IMG/VR virus record: IMGVR_UViG_3300033233_000004
Span: 62,001-126,000 of that record
From: a virus
DNA length: 64,000 nucleotides
Strand: one strand, 5' to 3'
Shown here piece after piece: positions 2,688-63,064 of the stretch. A program made the position numbers and the translations under genes. Position 1 is the stretch's first letter. Every line of letters begins with the position of its first letter. The notes below the pieces were generated by a model. It ran no database searches. It was not told the DNA's origin and was given only the letters and a program-made list of their open reading frames with translations.

Positions 2688-4623
2688 TAAACATCACCTC
2701 ACTTAACTGTTTTCCAACTGGAATAATATCATAATTCAATGCTTTTAGTCGTGCCTTCTCACCTTTAACTTTGACTTCTTCTGGATGTTCAAAAGCATGT
2801 CTCATCAAAACACGTAAGTGTTCAATATCAGGACAACTCCACTTCGCACCAATATAATTTCTAAAATACGGAAGCACTTGAAGTGGCATGTCTTCCAAGC
2901 GATAACTTAATGGATAACCCACCTCATCACTTATGAAATCCGTCATACCAGAATAATTCGTTGCAATTACTGGTATCCCACAAGCTCCCGCCTCAATTAA
3001 AAAATTACCAAACCCCTCTGCTCGTGAAGGAAAAATTCCACACTGGTGTGCCGTTATCATCTGAGGTACCATAGTCGGATGGAATGAGTTGGAAGTCAAA
3101 TAAATAGGAGCATGCGGCAACTCTCTACCACCAAGAACATTATTCCTCAACCACGTCTGAGCATCCAATCTTTGCTGTTGTAAAATATAGAACAAACTCA
3201 ACATATGAACAGAGAAAAATACGTCTTCATCAGGTTTAAATTCAGTAATAAATGCACGAAGAGCCAACTCCACACTCTTACGTTCTCCATAAGCACCCAT
3301 CATCAAGAATCCAAACTTACGACGCTTTTCAATAATCAATGGAATACGAGTTGGGTTGTAAATCTTGGTATCAATTGGATTTGGAATGATATCAATAGGA
3401 GTAGTAACACCACGCTCTATCAACAAATTCTGACAAAAAGTACTATTTGTTACCACATTGTCTACATGATTCAATTGGTCTACCCAACCATTGTGAGGTC
3501 GAGTGCCCTCAAACGTAGTATGCGCTATCCTTTTTAACCCCGGTGGCATTAAATATTGATGGTCTCCTTCTGAAGAACGCATAACGACTCTATTCCAATA
3601 ATCATTGGGTTTCTTAATCATTTCTTGTATTTCAAAATCATCCATATTCATCGGTTGATGATATTCTTCAGGAGCAATAGATACATCAACACCATTTCGT
3701 TTCAAACCCTTGGCAAGATTACGAAGAACTATGGAAAATGACCAATCACCATAGATTTTCCCTGTGATAAGAGCCTTCTTGTCACTGGTAGGCACATACT
3801 CTGACGCTGGACGATCATGCTTGAGATAGTACTTCTGCTGTTGAGCACGAGACAATTGACTTACCTTGTCTACACCACCAAAAACTTCATTGGAAGTCTT
3901 ATTTTCGTAATGAATTGTCTTAGCAGTAGGAATATAGAAAGTACGATAACCATATTTACGAGCAATAGTACAAAAATCTACTTCTTCAAAATAAGCAGGA
4001 TTGAACAACTCATCAAAACCCTGCATTACTTGTAAACATTCCTTAGTAATATAAAATAATGCGCCTGTAACATATTCCTGTTCTTCAGGATTGACTTCAA
4101 CAAAATCCTTATCCATAACGCCAGCTAATTTATGCTGCCCCCATCCATACACGTTGATAAAAGCTCCTCCATGTTGGATTCTTCCATCTGGAAAGAGTAA
4201 ACGCCCGCCAAGAATACCTATTTTATTAGCCCTATTCTTATCAGCAAAATTTACAAGTTCCTCAATACAATTGGAATACAACTCCATATCATTATTAGTA
4301 ACAAGAACGTCTGCATCAGGGTAATACTTTCTTACAATAGAAATACCATCATTACATCCACCAGCGTACCCACGATTCTCTTTGTTTAATACAAGACCTA
4401 ATGATATATTATGTGATATAATACTCATATATCCAGTATCATCTATAGCACACTTATCTCTCAAATATGTATCAGATATCCACTCTCGTGTTCCATCCGT
4501 AGAACCATTATCTACAATAACAACTGAGAAATCTTTGAAAGTTTGTCGTTCAAGACTTTTCAAAAAGAGTTTGGTGTAAAAGAGGTTGTTTATTACAGGC
4601 GTTACAACGATAACTTTAGGCAT
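2680..4623 (-). CDS. Two-domain glycosyltransferase (GT2 fused to GT4)
   Basis: A 647-residue fusion. Residues 1 to about 260 are a GT2 (GT-A) domain, with the strand KVIVVTPV, the VDNGSTDGT loop, and TNNDMEL as the DxD-like metal site. From about residue 280 a GT4 (GT-B) domain follows, with AEGFGNFLIEAG giving an EX7E pair near the end. Two active sites in one chain suggest that two sugars are added in sequence. GAGG lies 6 bases before the ATG. It sits between the intein-bearing glycosyltransferase and the single-domain one, in one transcription unit. Acceptor unknown. Confidence 0.88.
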   Translation of the reverse strand: MPKVIVVTPVINNLFYTKLFLKSLERQTFKDFSVVIVDNGSTDGTREWISDTYLRDKCAIDDTGYMSIISHNISLGLVLNKENRGYAGGCNDGISIVRKYYPDADVLVTNNDMELYSNCIEELVNFADKNRANKIGILGGRLLFPDGRIQHGGAFINVYGWGQHKLAGVMDKDFVEVNPEEQEYVTGALFYITKECLQVMQGFDELFNPAYFEEVDFCTIARKYGYRTFYIPTAKTIHYENKTSNEVFGGVDKVSQLSRAQQQKYYLKHDRPASEYVPTSDKKALITGKIYGDWSFSIVLRNLAKGLKRNGVDVSIAPEEYHQPMNMDDFEIQEMIKKPNDYWNRVVMRSSEGDHQYLMPPGLKRIAHTTFEGTRPHNGWVDQLNHVDNVVTNSTFCQNLLIERGVTTPIDIIPNPIDTKIYNPTRIPLIIEKRRKFGFLMMGAYGERKSVELALRAFITEFKPDEDVFFSVHMLSLFYILQQQRLDAQTWLRNNVLGGRELPHAPIYLTSNSFHPTMVPQMITAHQCGIFPSRAEGFGNFLIEAGACGIPVIATNYSGMTDFISDEVGYPLSYRLEDMPLQVLPYFRNYIGAKWSCPDIEHLRVLMRHAFEHPEEVKVKGEKARLKALNYDIIPVGKQLSEVMFSG

Positions 4624-41363: not shown

Positions 41364-41409
41364 AGCGACACCTATTGTACTAATGTGAATGTTGTGATAC
41401 GAAAAAAAT

Positions 41410-41438
41410 TTGCTTTTGATGTAGAAAATGTGTATATT
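41410..41438 (+). promoter_or_regulatory. Promoter of second plus-strand endonuclease (leaderless)
   Basis: TTGCTT, 17 bases (beginning TTGATG), TATATTG, ending 6 bases before the ATG at 41445. The layout equals that before the endonuclease at 25763, including the TTGAT bases after the -35. The mRNA should begin at the start codon. Confidence 0.75.
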
Positions 41439-41444
41439 GTATAT

Positions 41445-42134
41445 ATGAATAAACGATTGAATCTCATAGGGAAAACCTTCAACAGACTAACTGTTGTTGA
41501 GTTTGCTTTTGTGGATAAACGACATAAGTCTTATTGGAAATGCCGTTGTGAATGTGGTAAAGAAATAGTTGTTCGCTCTGATTGTCTAAAATCAAACCAC
41601 ACTAAATCTTGTGGTTGTCTAAGTAAAGAAATAACAAGTAAACGACTACAAGGAAATAAATTAGCTTTCAAACATGGACATTCCACGAAGACTAAGAAGT
41701 CGCCAGAATATTGGTCGTGGAAAGATATGGTTCATAGATGCATTTACAAAGGATATCGGTATTACAAACGCTATAGTGAGCTTGGTATCTATGAACCTTG
41801 GTTAATCTTTACCAACTTCTTGCAATATCTTAAAGATAACGGTATGTATCCAAGACCTAATGGGCTATCCATCCACAGAATTGATAATGAACAAGGATAC
41901 TTTCCCGGTAATATAAAATGGGCTACATCTAAAGAACAGGCCAACAATCGAAGACCACCTAAAATTCAATCTAATAATACATCTGGTTTCAAAGGTGTCT
42001 CGTACAATAAAACTGCAAGAAAATGGGTAGCACAGATTAAAGGAACTTATCTCGGTTTATTTCCTACTCCTGAATTAGCTGCTCAAGCCTATAAAGAAGC
42101 TGCAATTAAAACATACGTTAGTTTACCAATGTAA
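41445..42134 (+). CDS. HNH-type homing endonuclease with zinc module and AP2 domain
   Basis: About 229 residues, a close relative of the gene at 25763 (same order: LNLIGKTFNRLTVVEF, WKCRCECGKE, SCGC, SPEYWSWKDMVHRCIY, GLSIHRIDNEQGYFPGNIKW, TSGFKGVSYNKTARKW, TPELAAQA). The frame is open upstream to 41385, but the promoter layout and the likeness to the sister gene favour the ATG at 41445. The end overlaps the 3' end of the CHAP gene on the other strand by 17 bases. Inserted between a small gene and the lysis block. Confidence 0.85.
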   Translation: MNKRLNLIGKTFNRLTVVEFAFVDKRHKSYWKCRCECGKEIVVRSDCLKSNHTKSCGCLSKEITSKRLQGNKLAFKHGHSTKTKKSPEYWSWKDMVHRCIYKGYRYYKRYSELGIYEPWLIFTNFLQYLKDNGMYPRPNGLSIHRIDNEQGYFPGNIKWATSKEQANNRRPPKIQSNNTSGFKGVSYNKTARKWVAQIKGTYLGLFPTPELAAQAYKEAAIKTYVSLPM

Positions 42135-42660
42135 AGTAACAAATTCTGAAATAATTTGATGGTTGGATAGTTCTCGTTTTTTGAAAAACCCCACCGCCCT
42201 CGAACTGAGAACCAACCTCATTAGAACTCGTATTCCCTTCTATTGTCTCTCCTGATACTGTACCCCACCTGCGTATAAATCCAATATGACCAAGTGGCCC
42301 TGTTCCACGTTTCCATATTACAAGCGAACCAGACGGAATTTTGATTTTGCCAATTAAAACGTCGTTCGCCTTTATGGATTGTTTCGTAATGAACTTCTGT
42401 GCTAATGCAGAACGAATTGGAAATGTAGAATGGGATACTGTAAGGCAATACGATACAAACGCTGCACACCAAGAATACCCTTTTTCTAATCCAACCGAAC
42501 GAAGAAATTTCTCAACATTTACGCCATCATTATGACCCGTCGCCTCGACAGTACCGACATATGTATTTGCAGTATCAAGATGTGCTGCTGTTTTGTAATG
42601 ACCATGGGATGTGGATATACAAAACAAAGAAAACAGCAATATAATAATATACCGATACAT
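42118..42660 (-). CDS. Secreted CHAP-domain cell-wall hydrolase (endolysin candidate)
   Basis: A 180-residue protein with an N-terminal signal peptide or membrane anchor (YRYIIILLFSLFCISTS). It is followed by a CHAP-type domain with the catalytic Cys in KGYSWCAAFVSYCL, His in GPLGHIGFI and a polar residue in ETIEGNTSSNE. Such enzymes cut peptidoglycan amide bonds. The export signal suggests it may not need a holin for passage. It is grouped with small membrane proteins at 42664 and 43419, a lysis cassette. Weak ribosome-binding site. Confidence 0.78.
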   Translation of the reverse strand: MYRYIIILLFSLFCISTSHGHYKTAAHLDTANTYVGTVEATGHNDGVNVEKFLRSVGLEKGYSWCAAFVSYCLTVSHSTFPIRSALAQKFITKQSIKANDVLIGKIKIPSGSLVIWKRGTGPLGHIGFIRRWGTVSGETIEGNTSSNEVGSQFEGGGVFQKTRTIQPSNYFRICYFTLVN

Positions 42661-43418: not shown

Positions 43419-43919
43419 TTAATTATCCTTCTTTTTACCCATGTGCACAAAAACACGAAGTTTATCAAGAAGACCATTTGGAAATGGTAATCCTGCTATC
43501 ATACATGCATTTTCCACGATTGAAATAACTTCAGTTATAGCCAACCATGCTAAAGCTCCTGTATCGAGACCCATCCAACCAAAAATAAATAAACTGACAT
43601 ATGACAAAGAATGAAAAGCACCTATGATAATGAAATACATAAGTAACTTTATCAAACCGTTTCGAAATGCACTTGAATTGAATGAATTGTTTTTGAAAGC
43701 AAGCCATACTCCTGTTAGTTGGTCAATTAACACTAATCCAACTAATACACCGACACCCATTACATTTGAATGAATAAAAAAAGTGATAAAAGAAGCTATA
43801 ACAGTTAATGCTGTTTTTAACCATGGGAATTCCCACAATGAAGCAAAGTTATGTTTCAGAGGAAGAAAAAGCAAATTCAAATATTCCATTGATTCTATCT
43901 CACATTCTTTTGCACACAT
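43419..43919 (-). CDS. Phage holin, Holin_4 (TcdE/toxin-secretion) type
   Basis: A 166-residue membrane protein with about four hydrophobic segments. The diagnostic block is VLIDQLTGVWLAFKNNSFNS followed by FRNGLIKLLMYFIIIGAF, which is the Holin_4 signature (D-x-x-T-G and a following helix). The C-terminus is basic (MGKKKDN). GGAG lies 9 bases before the ATG. This is the most likely holin of the window, working with the CHAP hydrolase. A remnant of an endonuclease lies in the gap upstream. Confidence 0.75.
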   Translation of the reverse strand: MCAKECEIESMEYLNLLFLPLKHNFASLWEFPWLKTALTVIASFITFFIHSNVMGVGVLVGLVLIDQLTGVWLAFKNNSFNSSAFRNGLIKLLMYFIIIGAFHSLSYVSLFIFGWMGLDTGALAWLAITEVISIVENACMIAGLPFPNGLLDKLRVFVHMGKKKDN

Positions 43920-46183: not shown

Positions 46184-46978
46184 TTATTGGGTAATTGTAC
46201 CTGAATGCGTACCACGAGCAACGCCGTTAGCAACCAAAGCCGCCATACCAAGTTCCTCATAAGCTACGTAACCGATACTTGCCTGTTTTGGAGCATCGTC
46301 TGGCATAAGCATAAGCTCAGTACGGACAGGCATAACACCAAAGAATCTTGGCTCTGCCAATGCGTACACTGAACCACGCTGTACCTGACGGCTGACAATA
46401 AGGTCAATACCCCAAATGGAACCGTACAGACCAGTTTCCAATACCTCACGAAGAGATACAGGGTCGAGGTCTTTGTTCGACCAAACACGGATGTCTGCGA
46501 ACGAACGGAAACGCATAAGGAATGCGTACTGTGGGAGGTCGAAGTCCATGATAGACGTAGATAAGTCGTTCAAGAAAATCTTGCTTGCACCAGCCGTACC
46601 AACTGTGTAAGGAACATTGGCAAGGTTACCTGCCGTTGTACCATTCAAAAGTGCCAAGAACTGCAAGTCTTCCTGTTCCTGAACTGCAATCTTAAGTGCT
46701 TCTTGAGTACGATCAAGAATGTTGAAACGCCTCTGTTGAATCTCAGACAGACGGATGTTTGCGTCTGCGAAGATTTCCCAAGTCGTCGGTTCAACAAACT
46801 CAGCGTTGATATTAACTTCATCAACCGCACCCTTCTTTGCAACTACGAAAGCATTAACTTGTTTCTTAATGTCCCTATCGTAACGAACAATCTGACCTTG
46901 AGCCAGAATGTCAATTTCGAGGAACTTTCGGGCTACACCAACGTAGTCCAATTGTTCACGGATAGGCACTGCCATTTG
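46184..46978 (-). CDS. Major capsid protein, exon 2 (HK97-like)
   Basis: Encodes the last 264 residues of a capsid protein of about 314 residues. In frame it begins QMAVPIREQLDYVGVARKF and contains VRYDRDIKKQVNAFVVAKKG, then a P-domain-like helix and DLPQYAFLMRF and the E-loop-like parts of HK97 folds. The first residues of the mature frame lie 1 kb upstream (48003-48152), across a group I intron. Joining GCT (Ala) to CAA (Gln) keeps the frame. A nominal start 3 bases upstream (TTG) is not used. The terminator downstream is at 46108. Confidence 0.85.
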   Translation of the reverse strand, partial: QMAVPIREQLDYVGVARKFLEIDILAQGQIVRYDRDIKKQVNAFVVAKKGAVDEVNINAEFVEPTTWEIFADANIRLSEIQQRRFNILDRTQEALKIAVQEQEDLQFLALLNGTTAGNLANVPYTVGTAGASKIFLNDLSTSIMDFDLPQYAFLMRFRSFADIRVWSNKDLDPVSLREVLETGLYGSIWGIDLIVSRQVQRGSVYALAEPRFFGVMPVRTELMLMPDDAPKQASIGYVAYEELGMAALVANGVARGTHSGTITQ

Positions 46979-48002
46979 CAATATGTTACGTCTTATTCAG
47001 ACGGTGACAGTATTTCTACTGCACTCTTACTGTTGCCAGTAAGCTCGGACTATCTCTTCACTTTGGTATATTCAACCAAAATGTTTCACGTATAGTCTCT
47101 GAGGAGCACAAAACTTCTTTATGCATTTTGTATTTGAAATAAGGAACATAAAATCGAGAAAGATATTTGCTCAATATATGTCTTGTATCAGCCGCAAAAT
47201 ACAAATACCAATAGTGGGTTTTTCCATTACTTTTTTGAATCGGTGTTGTTTTTATTCCAAATTTTTTGAAGAAGTAATACCGAATAAGTTTTACTTCTTC
47301 TAAAGTAAAGGAACATGTTGATAACCAATAACTATTTTTATCAAATGCTCCATCGTCATAGAATAAAAAGACAAGGCCAAGTATACTTAACCTATCCAAC
47401 GCCTCTTCTGTAACAATTTTACGTTTTTCTTCATTATACATCATCCTATATATACATTTCAAATCGGGATGTTGTATAGTAGAAAATCCGCAACTAACAT
47501 CGTTCATTTCATATTTTATATCTTGAACACATAGATTATTCAGCAGTAGCCTTTTAATCTTTACGTATTCTTGTTGTTTATACGAATGATGAACTCTTAG
47601 TCTAACAGAACCATTTTTATTAATATCTAAATTACCATCTCCAAAAATAGTGCCAATAATAAAACCATATTGCCATTCTGGAATTGGATTACATCGAAGT
47701 ACTTCCGCCCGTTGTTGAATATCGGCAAGTTCTGTTGTCAATCCAAAAGATTTTCTATAAAATATTATAGGGTCTATAGGAATATTCAGTATACTTGCAA
47801 CTTCAACATGAGAAAGTTGCTTGATATCATTTTGATTAAGAAAAGATTCTGTCAGTATGTTACTATACTTGTAACGATACGTTCCCATCTTAGTTTTGCT
47901 TTCCTGCTGATTGACTCTGTTCTCGGATTTTTACCCTTTGGGTACCGCTAACATTAAATGAGTTGTTCCAGCATATAGTGAAATTAGGTGCCCAAATTAC
48001 TA
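46979..48002 (-). ncRNA. Group I intron in the major capsid gene
   Basis: A 1,024-base intron. P1: exon end GGTGCT pairs with GGGCACC in the intron, with a U-G pair at the splice site. A P-like element AATCAGCAGGAAAGC is at 47898-47912. R is CAGAGACTATACGTG (47084-47104 region) and S is GAAGAGATAGTCC (47047-47059); GACTAT and ATAGTC pair as P7. A P9 hairpin CTTACTG-GCAA-CAGTAAG (GNRA loop) is at 47026-47043, followed by CAGTA-GAAA-TACTG and CGTCT-GAATA-AGACG. The intron ends in G before CAA. The LAGLIDADG gene lies between P and R. Confidence 0.93.
47058..47888 (-). CDS. Intron-encoded LAGLIDADG homing endonuclease
   Basis: A 276-residue protein with two LAGLIDADG motifs: FIIGTIFGDGNLD (about 96-108) and GLVFLFYDDGAFD (about 192-204). 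Both keep the acidic residue, so it is likely active. Its N-terminus overlaps intron helix sequence and its last codons (SSETIRETF) are the R element of the intron core, so protein and ribozyme share bases. It would spread the intron to capsid genes without it. An ORF in this place is typical of group I introns of this type. Confidence 0.9.
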   Translation of the reverse strand: MGTYRYKYSNILTESFLNQNDIKQLSHVEVASILNIPIDPIIFYRKSFGLTTELADIQQRAEVLRCNPIPEWQYGFIIGTIFGDGNLDINKNGSVRLRVHHSYKQQEYVKIKRLLLNNLCVQDIKYEMNDVSCGFSTIQHPDLKCIYRMMYNEEKRKIVTEEALDRLSILGLVFLFYDDGAFDKNSYWLSTCSFTLEEVKLIRYYFFKKFGIKTTPIQKSNGKTHYWYLYFAADTRHILSKYLSRFYVPYFKYKMHKEVLCSSETIRETFWLNIPK

Positions 48003-48152
48003 AGCACCAACTGCTTGCCTTCCCGCTTCTGTTTGCAACGCATCAAACACTTGGTCTACGCTTACGGCATCCTGAAACGTCTGGAATCCGTCTTGTGCAG
48101 CCGTTGCCTGTGATGCTGTTGTTGCAAAACCTGCTTGTGGCTTGTTATTCAT
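48003..48152 (-). CDS. Major capsid protein, exon 1
   Basis: The first 50 codons: MNNKPQAGFATTASQATAAQ, then a helix ending QTEAGRQAVGA, after which the frame would stop at TAG inside the intron. AGAGGTAATATC before the ATG is a good ribosome-binding site, the same as before the gene at 48267. The reading frame continues in exon 2 at 46978. An Ala/Gln-rich N-terminus is common in capsid proteins with a delta-like or unordered arm. Confidence 0.88.
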
Positions 48153-48801: not shown

Positions 48802-50652
48802 TTACACTTTTTTCCTGTAATGCGGACGAACTTTTCGATACGATTCTTGTTCAGGGTCGAGTCCTTGTTTACGCAGACGATTTGCATACGTATCAAGATT
48901 ATGTGCAAATGATGTCTTAGTTAACGAAGACGTTGTTTGCATCTGTGGTACTACTGCGGCTTGAGTAATCTTACCATCAGTACTTACTTCTGATGCAACA
49001 CCTTCTGTATCAACATTCTTGTTATCTGGTTTACGAACAGCTTCATGAGTATTTGCAAGAATACCTTGTTCTACTTCTTCATTATCAGGAATACGAGCTT
49101 CTTTCAAAGCCGCTTCATTGACGATTGGCATAGACTCAATAAGTTCTTTCTGTGCTGCGAACTTAGCTTCGTCATATTCGACAACCTTACGAGCATACTC
49201 TGCAATAGCCGTCTTTGTAAACTTCACAATACCACGGCTTGCTGCCAAACGAGAGAAGTCAACTGCTACGCGAGCTTTTGCCCTGCGTATTTCAACTGAA
49301 GCTTCCGTCTTTGGCTTACCAGAACCAACTGAATCTGCATCATTACCACCAGTCAAACCACCCTCTACATCGTTTGCCGACTCTTCCTCTGGCTTGTAGT
49401 TAATGTTCATATCAACACCACTCTTGGTACCTGCATTTGCAGCAGCATCATTGATACCTGCGCCAAGATTAGCACCAGTCTTCTGACTTGATGTTAATGC
49501 TTTTGCAAACTCTGCATCACCAAATGCATCTTTGTAATATGCACGAAGTTTTGCTTTGTCCTTTACCTTTGGTTCGCGTTCTGCCGTTGCTTCCAAACCA
49601 ATAGTATCAACTTCTGCATTCAAATATGCTGCAACAGCCTCGATACCATTCTTTCTAATATGATTTACAACATTCTGTGAGAATGCTGGACTTGTGAAAA
49701 TAGCATAATTTTCTGCGGTCTTATCACCAACTGCTTTTGCCAATTTATCCCACGTTACAACAGCGTACTTACCTTGTTTGTCCTTGTTCAATGCACGAAG
49801 AACAAGAGCCGAACCAAATACATTGTTCTTGTTAACAACCTTGGCATTAACATATGCACCGAATTCATGTGGGTTACCTTCATCAGTCAAACGAGGTTCA
49901 GCAGCAGCATTTGGAAGAGCATCTTCCTTTGCCTTGTTTGTATGGAATTCTGCATTACCTGCTTCGTAGTGTTTGATTTCTTTTTTTGCGGAGTAGTTAA
50001 TGTCTCCATTAATACCCTTATCACCACTAAACTCTGCACCTGTTGGTGGAACTGCGGTACCAAATACTGTACCAAGTTCTGACCATGCTTGTTTTGCTTC
50101 TTTCACGTTCTGAACAACTGCATGAAGAGGGGAGTTATTGGAAACTTTAGTTGATGTTGATTTTCGTTTCAAAAGAAAAGCCCAATGACGAATTGCTCCA
50201 CGAGCATCCTCAACTGCGGAAATAGCTTGCTGTGTCAAAAGACCAATTTCGTTTTGTGCCTTTGCACTCAAACGGAAAGTCTTACTTGAAGTCTTTTGTT
50301 CCATATCAGCACCTTGGTCGGTAATGTTGTCGATACCCTCAACAACAGCCTTAAGGTCTGTGATAGCTTCATTAACAGTCTTCTTCGCCTCTTCAGGAGT
50401 CTTGATCTCAGGAACTTTTTCTTTACCTTCTTCTGTACCTGCTGGTGCACCAATTTCACTACCACCTGTCATGTCAACACCACCAAGATTTGCACTATCT
50501 TCATTGGACATATCGCCTGTACCTGCACCTGTAAAGGATTCAGGCGTATCATTAGATAGTTTGTTAATTAAATACTGTGCGCTCTTTTTGACAGAAGCAA
50601 GTTCAGTCAACATTTCACGCAGACTCTGGTTAACCTGTGCAGTTGAAATCAT
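48802..50652 (-). CDS. Scaffold or internal head protein
   Basis: About 616 residues, started at the ATG at 50652 (GGGG upstream). The protein is highly charged, Ala/Lys/Glu-rich, with low-complexity linkers and coiled-coil stretches (AAQKELIESMPIVNEAALKE), no enzyme motif visible and a basic C-terminus (SYRKVRPHYRKKV). Such composition directly upstream of capsid genes is typical of scaffolding or internal head proteins. A fused prohead protease is not seen. The C-terminal basic tail could bind the capsid. Confidence 0.55.
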   Translation of the reverse strand: MISTAQVNQSLREMLTELASVKKSAQYLINKLSNDTPESFTGAGTGDMSNEDSANLGGVDMTGGSEIGAPAGTEEGKEKVPEIKTPEEAKKTVNEAITDLKAVVEGIDNITDQGADMEQKTSSKTFRLSAKAQNEIGLLTQQAISAVEDARGAIRHWAFLLKRKSTSTKVSNNSPLHAVVQNVKEAKQAWSELGTVFGTAVPPTGAEFSGDKGINGDINYSAKKEIKHYEAGNAEFHTNKAKEDALPNAAAEPRLTDEGNPHEFGAYVNAKVVNKNNVFGSALVLRALNKDKQGKYAVVTWDKLAKAVGDKTAENYAIFTSPAFSQNVVNHIRKNGIEAVAAYLNAEVDTIGLEATAEREPKVKDKAKLRAYYKDAFGDAEFAKALTSSQKTGANLGAGINDAAANAGTKSGVDMNINYKPEEESANDVEGGLTGGNDADSVGSGKPKTEASVEIRRAKARVAVDFSRLAASRGIVKFTKTAIAEYARKVVEYDEAKFAAQKELIESMPIVNEAALKEARIPDNEEVEQGILANTHEAVRKPDNKNVDTEGVASEVSTDGKITQAAVVPQMQTTSSLTKTSFAHNLDTYANRLRKQGLDPEQESYRKVRPHYRKKV

Positions 50653-50725
50653 ATGAGAACCCCATTTTAAAAATTCATGTAAAAGAAGATGGTATATGTC
50701 CACCCTACACACTAAAAGTAATGCT

Positions 50726-61335: not shown

Positions 61336-61421
61336 TACCCTCAGTAGGATTCGAACCTACACGCTACTATTACTTCGCACTGGCTTCTAAGGCCAGCATG
61401 TCTGCATTTCATCATGAGGGC
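61336..61421 (-). tRNA. tRNA-Leu(UAG)
   Basis: 86 bases, class II. Acceptor GCCCTCA pairs with TGAGGGT; anticodon stem CTGGC/GCCAG with loop CTTAGAA gives UAG; a long variable arm is present; the T arm is GTAGGTTCGAATCCTAC. No CCA is encoded. Its 3' end doubles as the ribosome-binding site of the lipoprotein gene. Confidence 0.92.
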
Positions 61422-61612
61422 AGTAATAAGTACTATGGTGACATTGCATTTGCAGCGAAGGACTTACTCTTAAAGTTACTGGCGGAAAAAGCACAAGAAG
61501 CAGGCGAAAGTATACCTTCTTGTGTAAGACCAGCAAGTAAACGAGCGGACAATGAACGAACTATACTTGAAGAGCTATCATTTGCTACGCCAGTACACAT
61601 TACAACTATTGT
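61422..61612 (-). other. 191-base gap between tRNA genes
   Basis: A gap with a 55-codon minus-strand frame (about 61433-61600, Ser- and Ala-rich, no ribosome-binding site) and a longer plus-strand frame. Neither shows a family or a start signal. I see no tRNA here. It may hold an RNA or only processing space. Confidence 0.3.
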
Positions 61613-61683
61613 CAAGGTGTTGGGAATCGAACCCAAATTATTCCAATTTCCGATACTGGTACCATACCATTAGGCGACACCCT
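61613..61683 (-). tRNA. tRNA-Pro(CGG), by anticodon
   Basis: 71 bases. Acceptor AGGGTGT pairs with ACACCTT; anticodon stem CCAGT/ATTGG with loop ATCGGAA gives CGG (Pro); T arm TTGGGTTCGATTCCCAA. The D loop (AATGGTATGG) is unlike many Pro tRNAs, so the identity should be read with care. No CCA encoded. Confidence 0.75.
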
Positions 61684-61691
61684 GAAATTTT

Positions 61692-61754
61692 TGAGGAGTC
61701 ACGGTCGCACACGCTTCGTGCATCCAAGTTAACCGTTTGTGAGTTGACTCCTCA
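61692..61754 (-). ncRNA. Structured RNA element of 63 bases
   Basis: TGAGGAGTCA and TGACTCCTCA form a 10-bp perfect stem. Inside, CGGTT pairs with GACCG and GCAC with GTGC around a 7-base loop. It lies between tRNA-Pro and the RNase H-like gene, just after the stop of the latter, with no U-run. It could be a small RNA, a processing signal or a terminator. Not a tRNA: no standard anticodon arm or T loop. Confidence 0.5.
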
Positions 61755-61756
61755 TT

Positions 61757-62251
61757 TTATAACTCTCTTCGTACTATTTTATCCGCCGCATAAGATGCAG
61801 CATATGCTTCTGGCTTAGGCGTACATGGAAAACCACAACCTCGAACCCATCCTATTGCCCAATCATACATTTCATTGCTTTTGAATTCTTTCTCTTTGTT
61901 GAAGTCTAAATGCATGTCATACTCCACAATATTTGGTAATTCAAATGTACCAGTATCTCTGAAATAAGTAGCCATCTCAATGATAATTTCAACTTCACGA
62001 CTCAATCGTTTGAAATCATCTCGATGATATTCTCTTGTCATAGTCCCAACAATGTGTGCACCTTTACCATAACGGTAAAGTACAATAGCGATACCAAATT
62101 CTGCCCATCCCGCATCTTTTGGAAGAGAATCACATCCTACCCAAAGAGAAAATGGTTCCTGTCGATACTCAGCAACATATGCTTTAATATATTGTGCCAA
62201 GTCAGTAATATGAACACGAGAGAGACCAGTTGTTCTAAACTTGAAATCCAT
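61757..62251 (-). CDS. RNase H-like protein (YkuK/DUF458 type)
   Basis: A 164-residue protein with an RNase H-like fold. FSLWVGCDSLPKDAGWAEFG has the first Asp, EIIIEMATYF the Glu, VEYDMHLDFNKEKE the next acidic residues and GWVRGCGF with KPEAYAASYAADK is the usual ending. The match with the DUF458 family is clear by pattern. Role unknown, likely nucleic-acid cutting. AAGGAAACC lies before the ATG. Confidence 0.78.
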   Translation of the reverse strand: MDFKFRTTGLSRVHITDLAQYIKAYVAEYRQEPFSLWVGCDSLPKDAGWAEFGIAIVLYRYGKGAHIVGTMTREYHRDDFKRLSREVEIIIEMATYFRDTGTFELPNIVEYDMHLDFNKEKEFKSNEMYDWAIGWVRGCGFPCTPKPEAYAASYAADKIVRREL

Positions 62252-62291
62252 GTCTATGGTTTCCTTTCTTTGTCAGCGTAACTTATTATTG

Positions 62292-62362
62292 CTGCCCCAC
62301 AGAGATTCGAACTCCGATAAACACCTTCAAAGGGTGCCGTCCTTCCGTTGAACGATGAGGCA
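62292..62362 (-). tRNA. tRNA-Gln(UUG)
   Basis: 71 bases. Acceptor TGCCTCA pairs with TGGGGCA; anticodon stem GCACC/GGTGT with loop CTTTGAA gives UUG; T arm CGGAGTTCGAATCTCTG. No CCA is encoded. Confidence 0.9.
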
Positions 62363-62368
62363 ATTATT

Positions 62369-62875
62369 TTACATAAAAATAAATGCTATAACGAATGACA
62401 CAATCAAACCAATTGCTGCTTGAATCAACAAGATTCTTCCAAAAATAGGTGTCACTCTTGTTATCTTTGGTGAAATCTTCTTAAATATGAAATTGTATGC
62501 CTGTAAAAATAATCCAACCAATGTCCACGATGCCCATACAACTTCGTTTCCCAATACTTCCAACATAAATGCAAATTTATGATTGTACCAATTGAATATG
62601 TAGCAGAACAGATAGTAAAGCAAATCTGCCAACCATACATCCCACATGAAAAGAAACAAAATTGCAGGAACCCAACTAAACTGCCACCAAAGTACTGTTG
62701 TAAGAAGTATCTGAAAAATGGTTTGATAGATTCGATATTCATTAACTTCCCATTTAAAAAATGTAACCATAATATTATTTCGCCCAAGTTTGTTATACCC
62801 TATATAATCAAATAAGGCAAACACAAACAATGCTGCAAAAGCTATTAACCATATAATAATCCATGAAAACATCAT
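62369..62875 (-). CDS. Multi-pass membrane protein
   Basis: About 168 residues from the ATG at 62875, with AAGG just upstream; a longer frame would run into tRNA-Lys. About five hydrophobic segments (WIIIWLIAFAALFVFALFDY at the start, WVPAILFLFMWDVWLADLLY, and ILLIQAAIGLIVSFVIAFIF at the end). No family recognised. It lies between two tRNAs. Confidence 0.65.
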   Translation of the reverse strand: MMFSWIIIWLIAFAALFVFALFDYIGYNKLGRNNIMVTFFKWEVNEYRIYQTIFQILLTTVLWWQFSWVPAILFLFMWDVWLADLLYYLFCYIFNWYNHKFAFMLEVLGNEVVWASWTLVGLFLQAYNFIFKKISPKITRVTPIFGRILLIQAAIGLIVSFVIAFIFM

Positions 62876-62892
62876 AGTACCTTCCTTTTTGG

Positions 62893-62965
62893 TGCATCCA
62901 GTAGGAGTCGAACCTACAACCTTTCGATTAAGAATCGAAAGCTCTACCAATTGAGCTATGGATAC
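62893..62965 (-). tRNA. tRNA-Lys(CUU)
   Basis: 73 bases, with CCA encoded after it (62890-62892). Acceptor GTATCCA pairs with TGGATGC; anticodon stem TTCGA/TCGAA with loop TTCTTAA gives CUU; D arm AGCTCAATTGGTAGAGC; T arm GTAGGTTCGACTCCTAC. The only tRNA here with its own CCA. Confidence 0.93.
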
Positions 62966-62992
62966 GTATTTTTAAATTCGAACTGTATTTTG

Positions 62993-63064
62993 TGCCGCCA
63001 CTCAGAATCGAACTGAGGCCTCGCTGCTTAAAAGGCAGGTGAGCTACCATTACCCCATGGGGGC
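62993..63064 (-). tRNA. tRNA-Lys(UUU)
   Basis: 72 bases. Acceptor GCCCCCA and TGGCGGC pair except for a C-C mismatch at position 4; anticodon stem CCTGC/GCAGC has a mismatch at its outer end; loop CTTTTAA gives UUU. T arm CTCAGTTCGATTCTGAG is perfect. The mismatches may mark early decay. No CCA encoded. Confidence 0.82.

What the first reader, a model, noticed from the sequence alone, without database searches (positions are those of the whole stretch)
46184..48152. Group I intron with LAGLIDADG gene splits the major capsid gene
The capsid protein starts at 48152, stops at a TAG after 50 codons and resumes in frame at 46978. The 1,024 bases between show a P1 pairing with U-G at the splice site, R and S elements forming P7, GNRA hairpins after S, a terminal G, and an LAGLIDADG gene. 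Introns in phages mostly sit in DNA metabolism genes. One in the most highly made structural gene would tie capsid output to splicing.
Basis: partly seen in the sequence, partly recalled or inferred. Interest (0 to 1): 0.88.

Follow-up and report, generated by a model that had tools for sequence, protein, structure and literature searches.

The report
Self-splicing intron in phage capsid gene
The gene for this phage's main shell protein is cut in two by a mobile, probably self-splicing RNA element that carries its own DNA-cutting enzyme; such capsid introns are known from a few phages, but close relatives of this one turn up mainly in capsid genes of many unrelated phages, while the same element in bacteria sits in ribosomal RNA genes.

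Summary
On the minus strand, MCP exon 1 (48152-48003), a 1,024-nt group I intron (48002-46979) and exon 2 (46978-46184) join in frame to a 314-aa phage-G-type major head protein (PHROG 2522, 1e-50). Four IMG/VR relatives (72-84% DNA identity) have the unbroken gene with the exact junction GCT|CAA. Rfam Intron_gpI hits the 3' half (44 bits, E 1e-9, below the gathering score because the ORF splits the core). P1 with U-G, a perfect 5-bp P10, P3-P9 and terminal G are all present. Three related introns in homologous capsid genes, one ORF-less at exactly the same site, give strong covariation (11 of 29 pairs doubly changed, 0/500 shuffles). The LAGLIDADG gene sits in P6 and runs through the 3' core. 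Splicing is inferred, not shown.

Capsid introns are already known (LittleE, Tuc2009, crAss-like phages), so this is a new member of a known kind. New here: introns with this core, found without reference to host gene, lie in MCP genes in 45 of 68 phage exon clusters (ten PHROG families), but beside rRNA in 114 of 117 bacterial and archaeal loci. Cultured Lysinibacillus phage LysYB2 carries an unannotated one, allowing bench tests.

The parts
48003..48152 (-). MCP exon 1 (50 codons, ends ...GTTGGTGCT)
   Evidence: Unbroken in L001-L004; covered in part by PHROG 2522
46979..48002 (-). group I intron, 1,024 nt, terminal G
   Evidence: Rfam RF00028 44.2 bits, E 1.4e-9; comparison with unbroken genes; covariation with three related introns
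46184..46978 (-). MCP exon 2 (264 codons plus stop)
   Evidence: PHROG 2522 major head protein 1.1e-50 on the spliced protein
48003..48008 (-). P1 5' strand GGUGCU (exon)
   Evidence: sequence; MFE fold
47987..47992 (-). internal guide GGCACC (P1 3' strand, U-G at splice site)
   Evidence: sequence; MFE fold
47993..47997 (-). P10 5' strand AUUUG, pairs with exon 2 CAAAU at 46978-46974
   Evidence: sequence; equivalent P10 pairings in L020 and the second L058 intron
47978..47983 (-). P3 5' strand UUUCAC
   Evidence: 4 of 6 pairs covary
47969..47973 (-). P4 5' strand UGCUG (element P)
   Evidence: alignment A4
47905..47909 (-). P4 3' strand CAGCA (element Q)
47902..47904 (-). P6 5' strand GGA; may overlap a Shine-Dalgarno-like AGGA for the ORF
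   Evidence: SD role inferred
47058..47888 (-). LAGLIDADG homing endonuclease ORF (276 aa), in P6 loop and reading through P6', R, P3' and P8; stop just before S
   Evidence: Pfam LAGLIDADG_2 4.8e-25; PHROG 11023 2.5e-11; both acidic motifs intact in 4 of 4 relatives
47103..47105 (-). P6 3' strand UCC
47092..47097 (-). P7 5' strand GACUAU (element R)
47084..47089 (-). P3 3' strand GUGAAA
47059..47083 (-). P8 hairpin CAUUUUGG...CCAAAGUG
   Evidence: Rfam alignment; MFE fold
47048..47053 (-). P7 3' strand AUAGUC (element S)
47026..47043 (-). P9 hairpin with GCAA tetraloop
   Evidence: 4 of 7 pairs covary, GNRA loop in all four

Best explanation
A mobile group I intron of the IB type common in rRNA genes (subgroup assigned from general knowledge, not tested) sits in the MCP gene of a phage-G-like phage. 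Inferred working: the late capsid transcript is made as one precursor; the ribozyme folds, guanosine attacks after GGUGCU, and the exons join to give the 314-aa capsid protein. Ribosomes entering from exon 1 stop at the TAG that begins the intron and so do not disturb the core. A second ribosome entry inside P6 makes the LAGLIDADG endonuclease from unspliced RNA. Because that ORF runs through R, P3' and P8 and stops just before S, translating it and splicing the same RNA molecule should exclude one another. The endonuclease is expected to cut intronless capsid alleles of coinfecting relatives at the conserved GCT|CAAATGGC site and copy the intron in.
For: Exact empty-site alleles in four relatives and a 40-bp site matched at 31-34 of 40 positions in many intronless relatives. 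Complete group I anatomy with U-G P1, perfect P10, P3-P9 and terminal G. Covariation: 99.1% paired, 11 doubly changed pairs, 0/500 shuffles, slid controls 36-43%. An ORF-less homologous intron at exactly the same site in L058 (71% identity outside the ORF) and an ORF-bearing one 5 nt away in L020. ORF with both acidic residues intact and foreign composition (31% GC against 47% in the exons). Sporadic presence: among about 32 distinct relatives of at least 50% identity (L029-L061) only L058 and L020/L060 have it.
Against: No RNA data. The Rfam score is below the family's gathering threshold (44.2 against 50). Cleavage by the endonuclease is untested; the closest annotated phage proteins are about 30% identical, no PDB chain matches, and the single-sequence AlphaFold model was useless (pLDDT 34). 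The competition between translation and splicing is inferred from overlap alone.
Confidence: 0.93

Rival explanations
1. A degenerate, non-splicing intron: the phage is a dead or defective lineage, or the capsid is made from exon 2 alone by starting at the ATG that is the second codon of exon 2.
For: Exon 2 has an ATG at codon 2 and phage G's MCP is shorter at its N-terminus.
Against: All core helices, P1 and P10 are intact and covary. No Shine-Dalgarno sequence precedes that ATG. Phage G and all close relatives code across the junction. Both exons keep an open frame.
Confidence: 0.04
2. A standalone LAGLIDADG gene inserted without a ribozyme, with two capsid fragments assembling in trans.
For: An endonuclease gene lies between two open frames.
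Against: Group I covariance-model hit, P1/P10 guide pairing, homologous ORF-less intron at the same site.
Confidence: 0.01
3. The capsid location is adaptive, on top of the best explanation: the intron-borne endonuclease acts as a weapon against coinfecting relatives by cutting their capsid gene, as gp210 of PhiPA3 does to a PhiKZ RNA-polymerase gene (PMC11620839), or splicing times capsid production.
For: Repeated occupation of MCP genes across ten PHROG families; published precedent for interference by an intron endonuclease in another gene.
Against: Purely selfish homing into a conserved, essential gene explains the same pattern; intron-free relatives are the majority.
Confidence: 0.25

Closest known systems
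Mycobacteriophage LittleE capsid intron (PMC3706429)
   Same: Putative group I intron with a LAGLIDADG reading frame in a major capsid gene; splicing shown by RT-PCR and protein sequencing.
   Different: Different phage type; there the reading frame is on the opposite strand; intron class was left open by its authors. Not compared by sequence here.
Lactococcal phage Tuc2009 capsid intron (cited in PMC3706429)
   Same: Intron in a capsid subunit gene.
   Different: Not compared by sequence here.
MCP introns of crAss-like Delta and Zeta phages (PMC7886860)
   Same: Group I introns in MCP, up to four intervening segments in one gene.
   Different: Gut Bacteroidetes phages; not compared by sequence here.
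Bacterial and archaeal rRNA group I introns with the same core (loci L225-L341)
   Same: Same core motif TATATGCTGGAA...AATCAGCAGGRAA.
   Different: Lie in or beside 23S/16S rRNA genes (114 of 117), none next to a relative of the intron-bearing capsid genes.
L058 intron 1 (IMGVR_UViG_3300035659_001042)
   Same: Homologous intron at exactly the same MCP site; nearest relative on the core tree.
   Different: No ORF, 271 nt; the same gene carries a second, LAGLIDADG-bearing intron downstream.

Membership tests
Group I intron (Rfam RF00028) | Covariance-model similarity | tested here: met
   44.2 bits, E 1.4e-9; below the gathering score of 50, explained by the ORF separating the core halves
Group I intron (Rfam RF00028) | P1 with U-G at the 5' splice site, P10, terminal G | tested here: met
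   exact empty-site junction
Group I intron (Rfam RF00028) | Conserved core P3-P8 supported by covariation | tested here: met
   (P3, P5, P9 covary; P4, P6, P7 invariant in the counted columns)
Group I intron (Rfam RF00028) | Guanosine-initiated self-splicing | not testable with these tools
   needs in vitro transcription with labelled GTP
Group I subgroup IB | Subgroup-specific structure (absence of P7.1/P7.2 etc.) | not tested
   no subgroup models available; assigned from general knowledge and similarity to rRNA-type cores
LAGLIDADG homing endonuclease | Domain with two acidic motifs | tested here: met
   Pfam 4.8e-25; GDG and DDG invariant
LAGLIDADG homing endonuclease | Cleaves the intronless allele | not testable with these tools
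   only indirect: sporadic distribution and conserved target site
Phage-G-type major capsid protein | Similarity of spliced product along its length | tested here: met
   PHROG 2522 1.1e-50; phage G gp27 39% identity

The most novel reading that the evidence does not exclude
A lineage of group I introns, sharing the core found in bacterial rRNA genes, has made phage major capsid genes its main home: it occupies MCP genes of at least ten PHROG families at many positions, up to three introns per gene, with endonucleases whose C-terminal part is often encoded by the ribozyme core. In phages the capsid gene would play the part that rRNA plays in cells.
Probability: 0.65. Interest if true: 0.66.

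Novelty: new member of a known kind. Interest (0 to 1): 0.52.

Why it matters
A review lists phage DNA polymerase, ribonucleotide reductase and terminase genes as typical intron homes (PMC3984707). For this core type the usual phage home is instead the gene for the main structural protein. That raises a testable question: how is splicing made efficient enough for hundreds of capsid subunits per particle, and does the resident endonuclease harm coinfecting relatives? It also warns annotators: such capsid genes are split and easily missed, as in the cultured phage LysYB2, where the last exon is not annotated.

Tried and rejected
Searching viral contigs with the LAGLIDADG protein alone found no relative. 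Phage isolates share only about 30% identity with it, and no PDB chain matches. A single-sequence AlphaFold model was too poor to use. A control pattern with the P4 variant TGCGGG found one locus only, so it could not serve as a control for host-gene preference. I first took the L020 intron for the same site; P1/P10 pairing places it 5 nt downstream. A regular expression for R was wrong at first and was redone. A 20-source Rfam call failed and was replaced by an eight-source sample. L018, L024 and L027 resemble fungal mitochondrial genes (judged from sequence, not tested) and L162 a tRNA intron; they were not counted as phage capsid cases.

Full report
WHAT IS THERE. The window is bases 62001-126000 of a 171,836-bp IMG/VR virus record. 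On the minus strand an ATG at 48152 opens 50 codons, a TAG follows at once, and a 264-codon frame resumes at 46978. Joining 48152-48003 to 46978-46184 gives a 314-aa protein that matches PHROG 2522, major head protein, at 1.1e-50, with phage G gp27 as the nearest annotated relative (39% identity). Between the exons lie 1,024 nt with a 276-aa ORF (47888-47058) that matches Pfam LAGLIDADG_2 at 4.8e-25.

THE EMPTY SITE. Four IMG/VR contigs (L001-L004) carry the same gene unbroken, 72-84% identical in DNA, and align through the junction without gap...GGTGC(T/A/G)|CA(A/G)ATGGC.... The first exon is therefore part of the capsid gene, and the 1,024 nt are an exact insertion. Across 20 bp on either side many intronless relatives match 31-34 of 40 bases.

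THE RIBOZYME. Rfam RF00028 scores 44.2 bits (E 1.4e-9) on the 3' half. I attribute the shortfall from the gathering score of 50 to the ORF, which separates the two halves of the core. By inspection and folding: P1 GGUGCU/GGCACC with U-G at the splice site; P10 AUUUG/CAAAU, perfect and directly 5' of the guide; P3 UUUCAC/GUGAAA; P4 UGCUG/CAGCA; P5 ACUC/GAGU; P6 GGA/UCC; P7 GACUAU/AUAGUC; P8; P9 with a GCAA loop; terminal G.

COVARIATION. Three related introns in homologous capsid genes were found: L058 intron 1 (271 nt, no ORF, at exactly the same site), L058 intron 2 (second MCP site, LAGLIDADG ORF) and L020 (851 nt, LAGLIDADG ORF, 5 nt downstream). On their alignment with the window (ORFs removed), 29 pairs of P3, P4, P5, P6, P7 and P9 are 99.1% paired, with 11 pairs changed on both sides; 0 of 500 shuffles reach this, and slid structures fall to 36-43%. 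In L058 intron 2, P7 reads GACUG/CAGUC in the sequence, a compensated change that lies in a gapped column outside the count. Caveat: the structure was written from the window sequence, and four sequences are few. P10-type pairing is also perfect at L020 (AUCGCU/GGCGAU) and L058 intron 2 (GUCAUA/UAUGAC), read by eye.

THE ORF. It begins in the P6 loop and runs through P6', R, P3' and P8, ending at a TGA just before S. L020, L058 intron 2, L010, L019, L023 and L026 show the same plan or read on into or through S. Both acidic motifs are intact in the four aligned proteins. GC is 31% against 47% in the exons. An AGGA that overlaps the start of P6 lies about 13 nt before the ATG and could serve as a ribosome entry; this is inference. 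If so, translating the endonuclease and splicing the same molecule exclude one another.

DISTRIBUTION. In 80 loci found with the capsid alignment, about 32 are distinct relatives of at least 50% identity; only L058 and L020/L060 carry recognised introns. The rest of the window's own record has no second group I intron. Such patchiness fits homing.

HOST-GENE CENSUS. For each intron the longer open flanking frame was taken as exon, clustered at 80% and scanned against PHROGs. In this set 45 of 68 clusters (58 of 117 contigs) are MCP by PHROG match or by blastp homology to a matched exon; ten PHROG families are covered across the whole collection of introns. The next commonest is the portal protein (three loci groups: L168, L175, L209). 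The only DNA polymerase case (L006/L009) came from another core pattern. About 20 clusters are unassigned, many with short exons, and the exon choice was mechanical. L022/L025 hold three introns in one probable MCP gene, L058 two. The pattern was taken from a capsid intron, so the claim is about this core type, not about phage introns at large.

CELLULAR CONTRAST. The same pattern over GTDB genomes gave 117 loci, mostly Patescibacteria and other metagenome-assembled genomes. In 114 an rRNA match, with the intron core masked in the query, lies within 2.5 kb, against 4 of 115 viral loci. In an Rfam sample of eight, seven cores lie inside 23S or 16S rRNA. None of the GTDB loci has a relative of the intron-bearing capsid exons. 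On a core tree (148 columns, weakly resolved) MCP and rRNA labels need 11 changes against 27-36 in 200 shuffles: a limited number of transfers between the two habitats, followed by spread within each, fits best; the tree cannot give their direction. The window pairs with L058 intron 1 (SH-aLRT 95).

A CULTURED EXAMPLE. Lysinibacillus phage LysYB2 (OP628076, locus L343) has an ORF-less intron of this kind near the 3' end of its annotated major capsid gene. Exon 1 ends at L343:3258, the intron is 3259-3585, and the last exon codes PVLYAPKKWMRFRNIKAELYNGVI; unbroken Bacillus phage Goe26 reads LLYGTPILYAPKKWVRFKNIKAE at this place. The record's capsid annotation stops at a stop codon inside the intron.

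WHAT IS KNOWN. LittleE has a capsid-gene intron with a LAGLIDADG frame, shown to splice by RT-PCR and protein sequencing, and Tuc2009 is cited there as another (PMC3706429). crAss-like Delta and Zeta phages have MCP introns (PMC7886860). Reviews and surveys otherwise stress DNA polymerase, nrd and terminase genes (PMC3984707; PMC11878797). An intron endonuclease that harms a coinfecting phage is known from PhiPA3 (PMC11620839). The window's intron is therefore a new member of a known kind. The capsid preference of this core type I did not find described in the papers searched, which cover open-licence papers only.

SHOWN AND INFERRED. Shown: exact insertion, group I anatomy with covariation, LAGLIDADG ORF, homologous introns at or near the site, MCP-rich host genes for this core in phages. 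Inferred: splicing in vivo, endonuclease activity and homing, mutual exclusion of ORF translation and splicing, any effect on capsid output or on competitors.

Noticed in passing
window 61336-63064; L015 (record 126001-146000): The phage carries about 36 tRNA genes, covering most amino acids, and a tmRNA gene (L015:9597-10010, minus; Rfam 105 bits) whose predicted tag AEAKSSTAFVDEAGILVFADESELVPVMV is long and does not end in the usual LAA.
   Followed up: partly
window 41385-42134 (+): Standalone HNH/AP2 endonuclease gene on the strand opposite to its neighbours, overlapping the end of a CHAP-domain endolysin (42118-42660) and near a holin (43419-43919).
   Followed up: no
L022:7380-10330 on the reverse complement; also L021, L025: A probable capsid gene split by three group I introns, two of them with LAGLIDADG ORFs.
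   Followed up: partly
L343:3259-3585 (Lysinibacillus phage LysYB2): Unannotated ORF-less group I intron in the capsid gene of a cultured phage; the last exon is missing from the record's annotation.
   Followed up: yes
L010:10558-11534; L007:2535-3463: Related introns in genes that look like tail-tube or other virion proteins, each with a different LAGLIDADG-like ORF placed downstream of P3'.
   Followed up: no
window 48805-50712: A 636-aa protein two genes upstream of the capsid gene matches no Pfam or PHROG family; its place suggests a scaffold or internal head protein.
   Followed up: no
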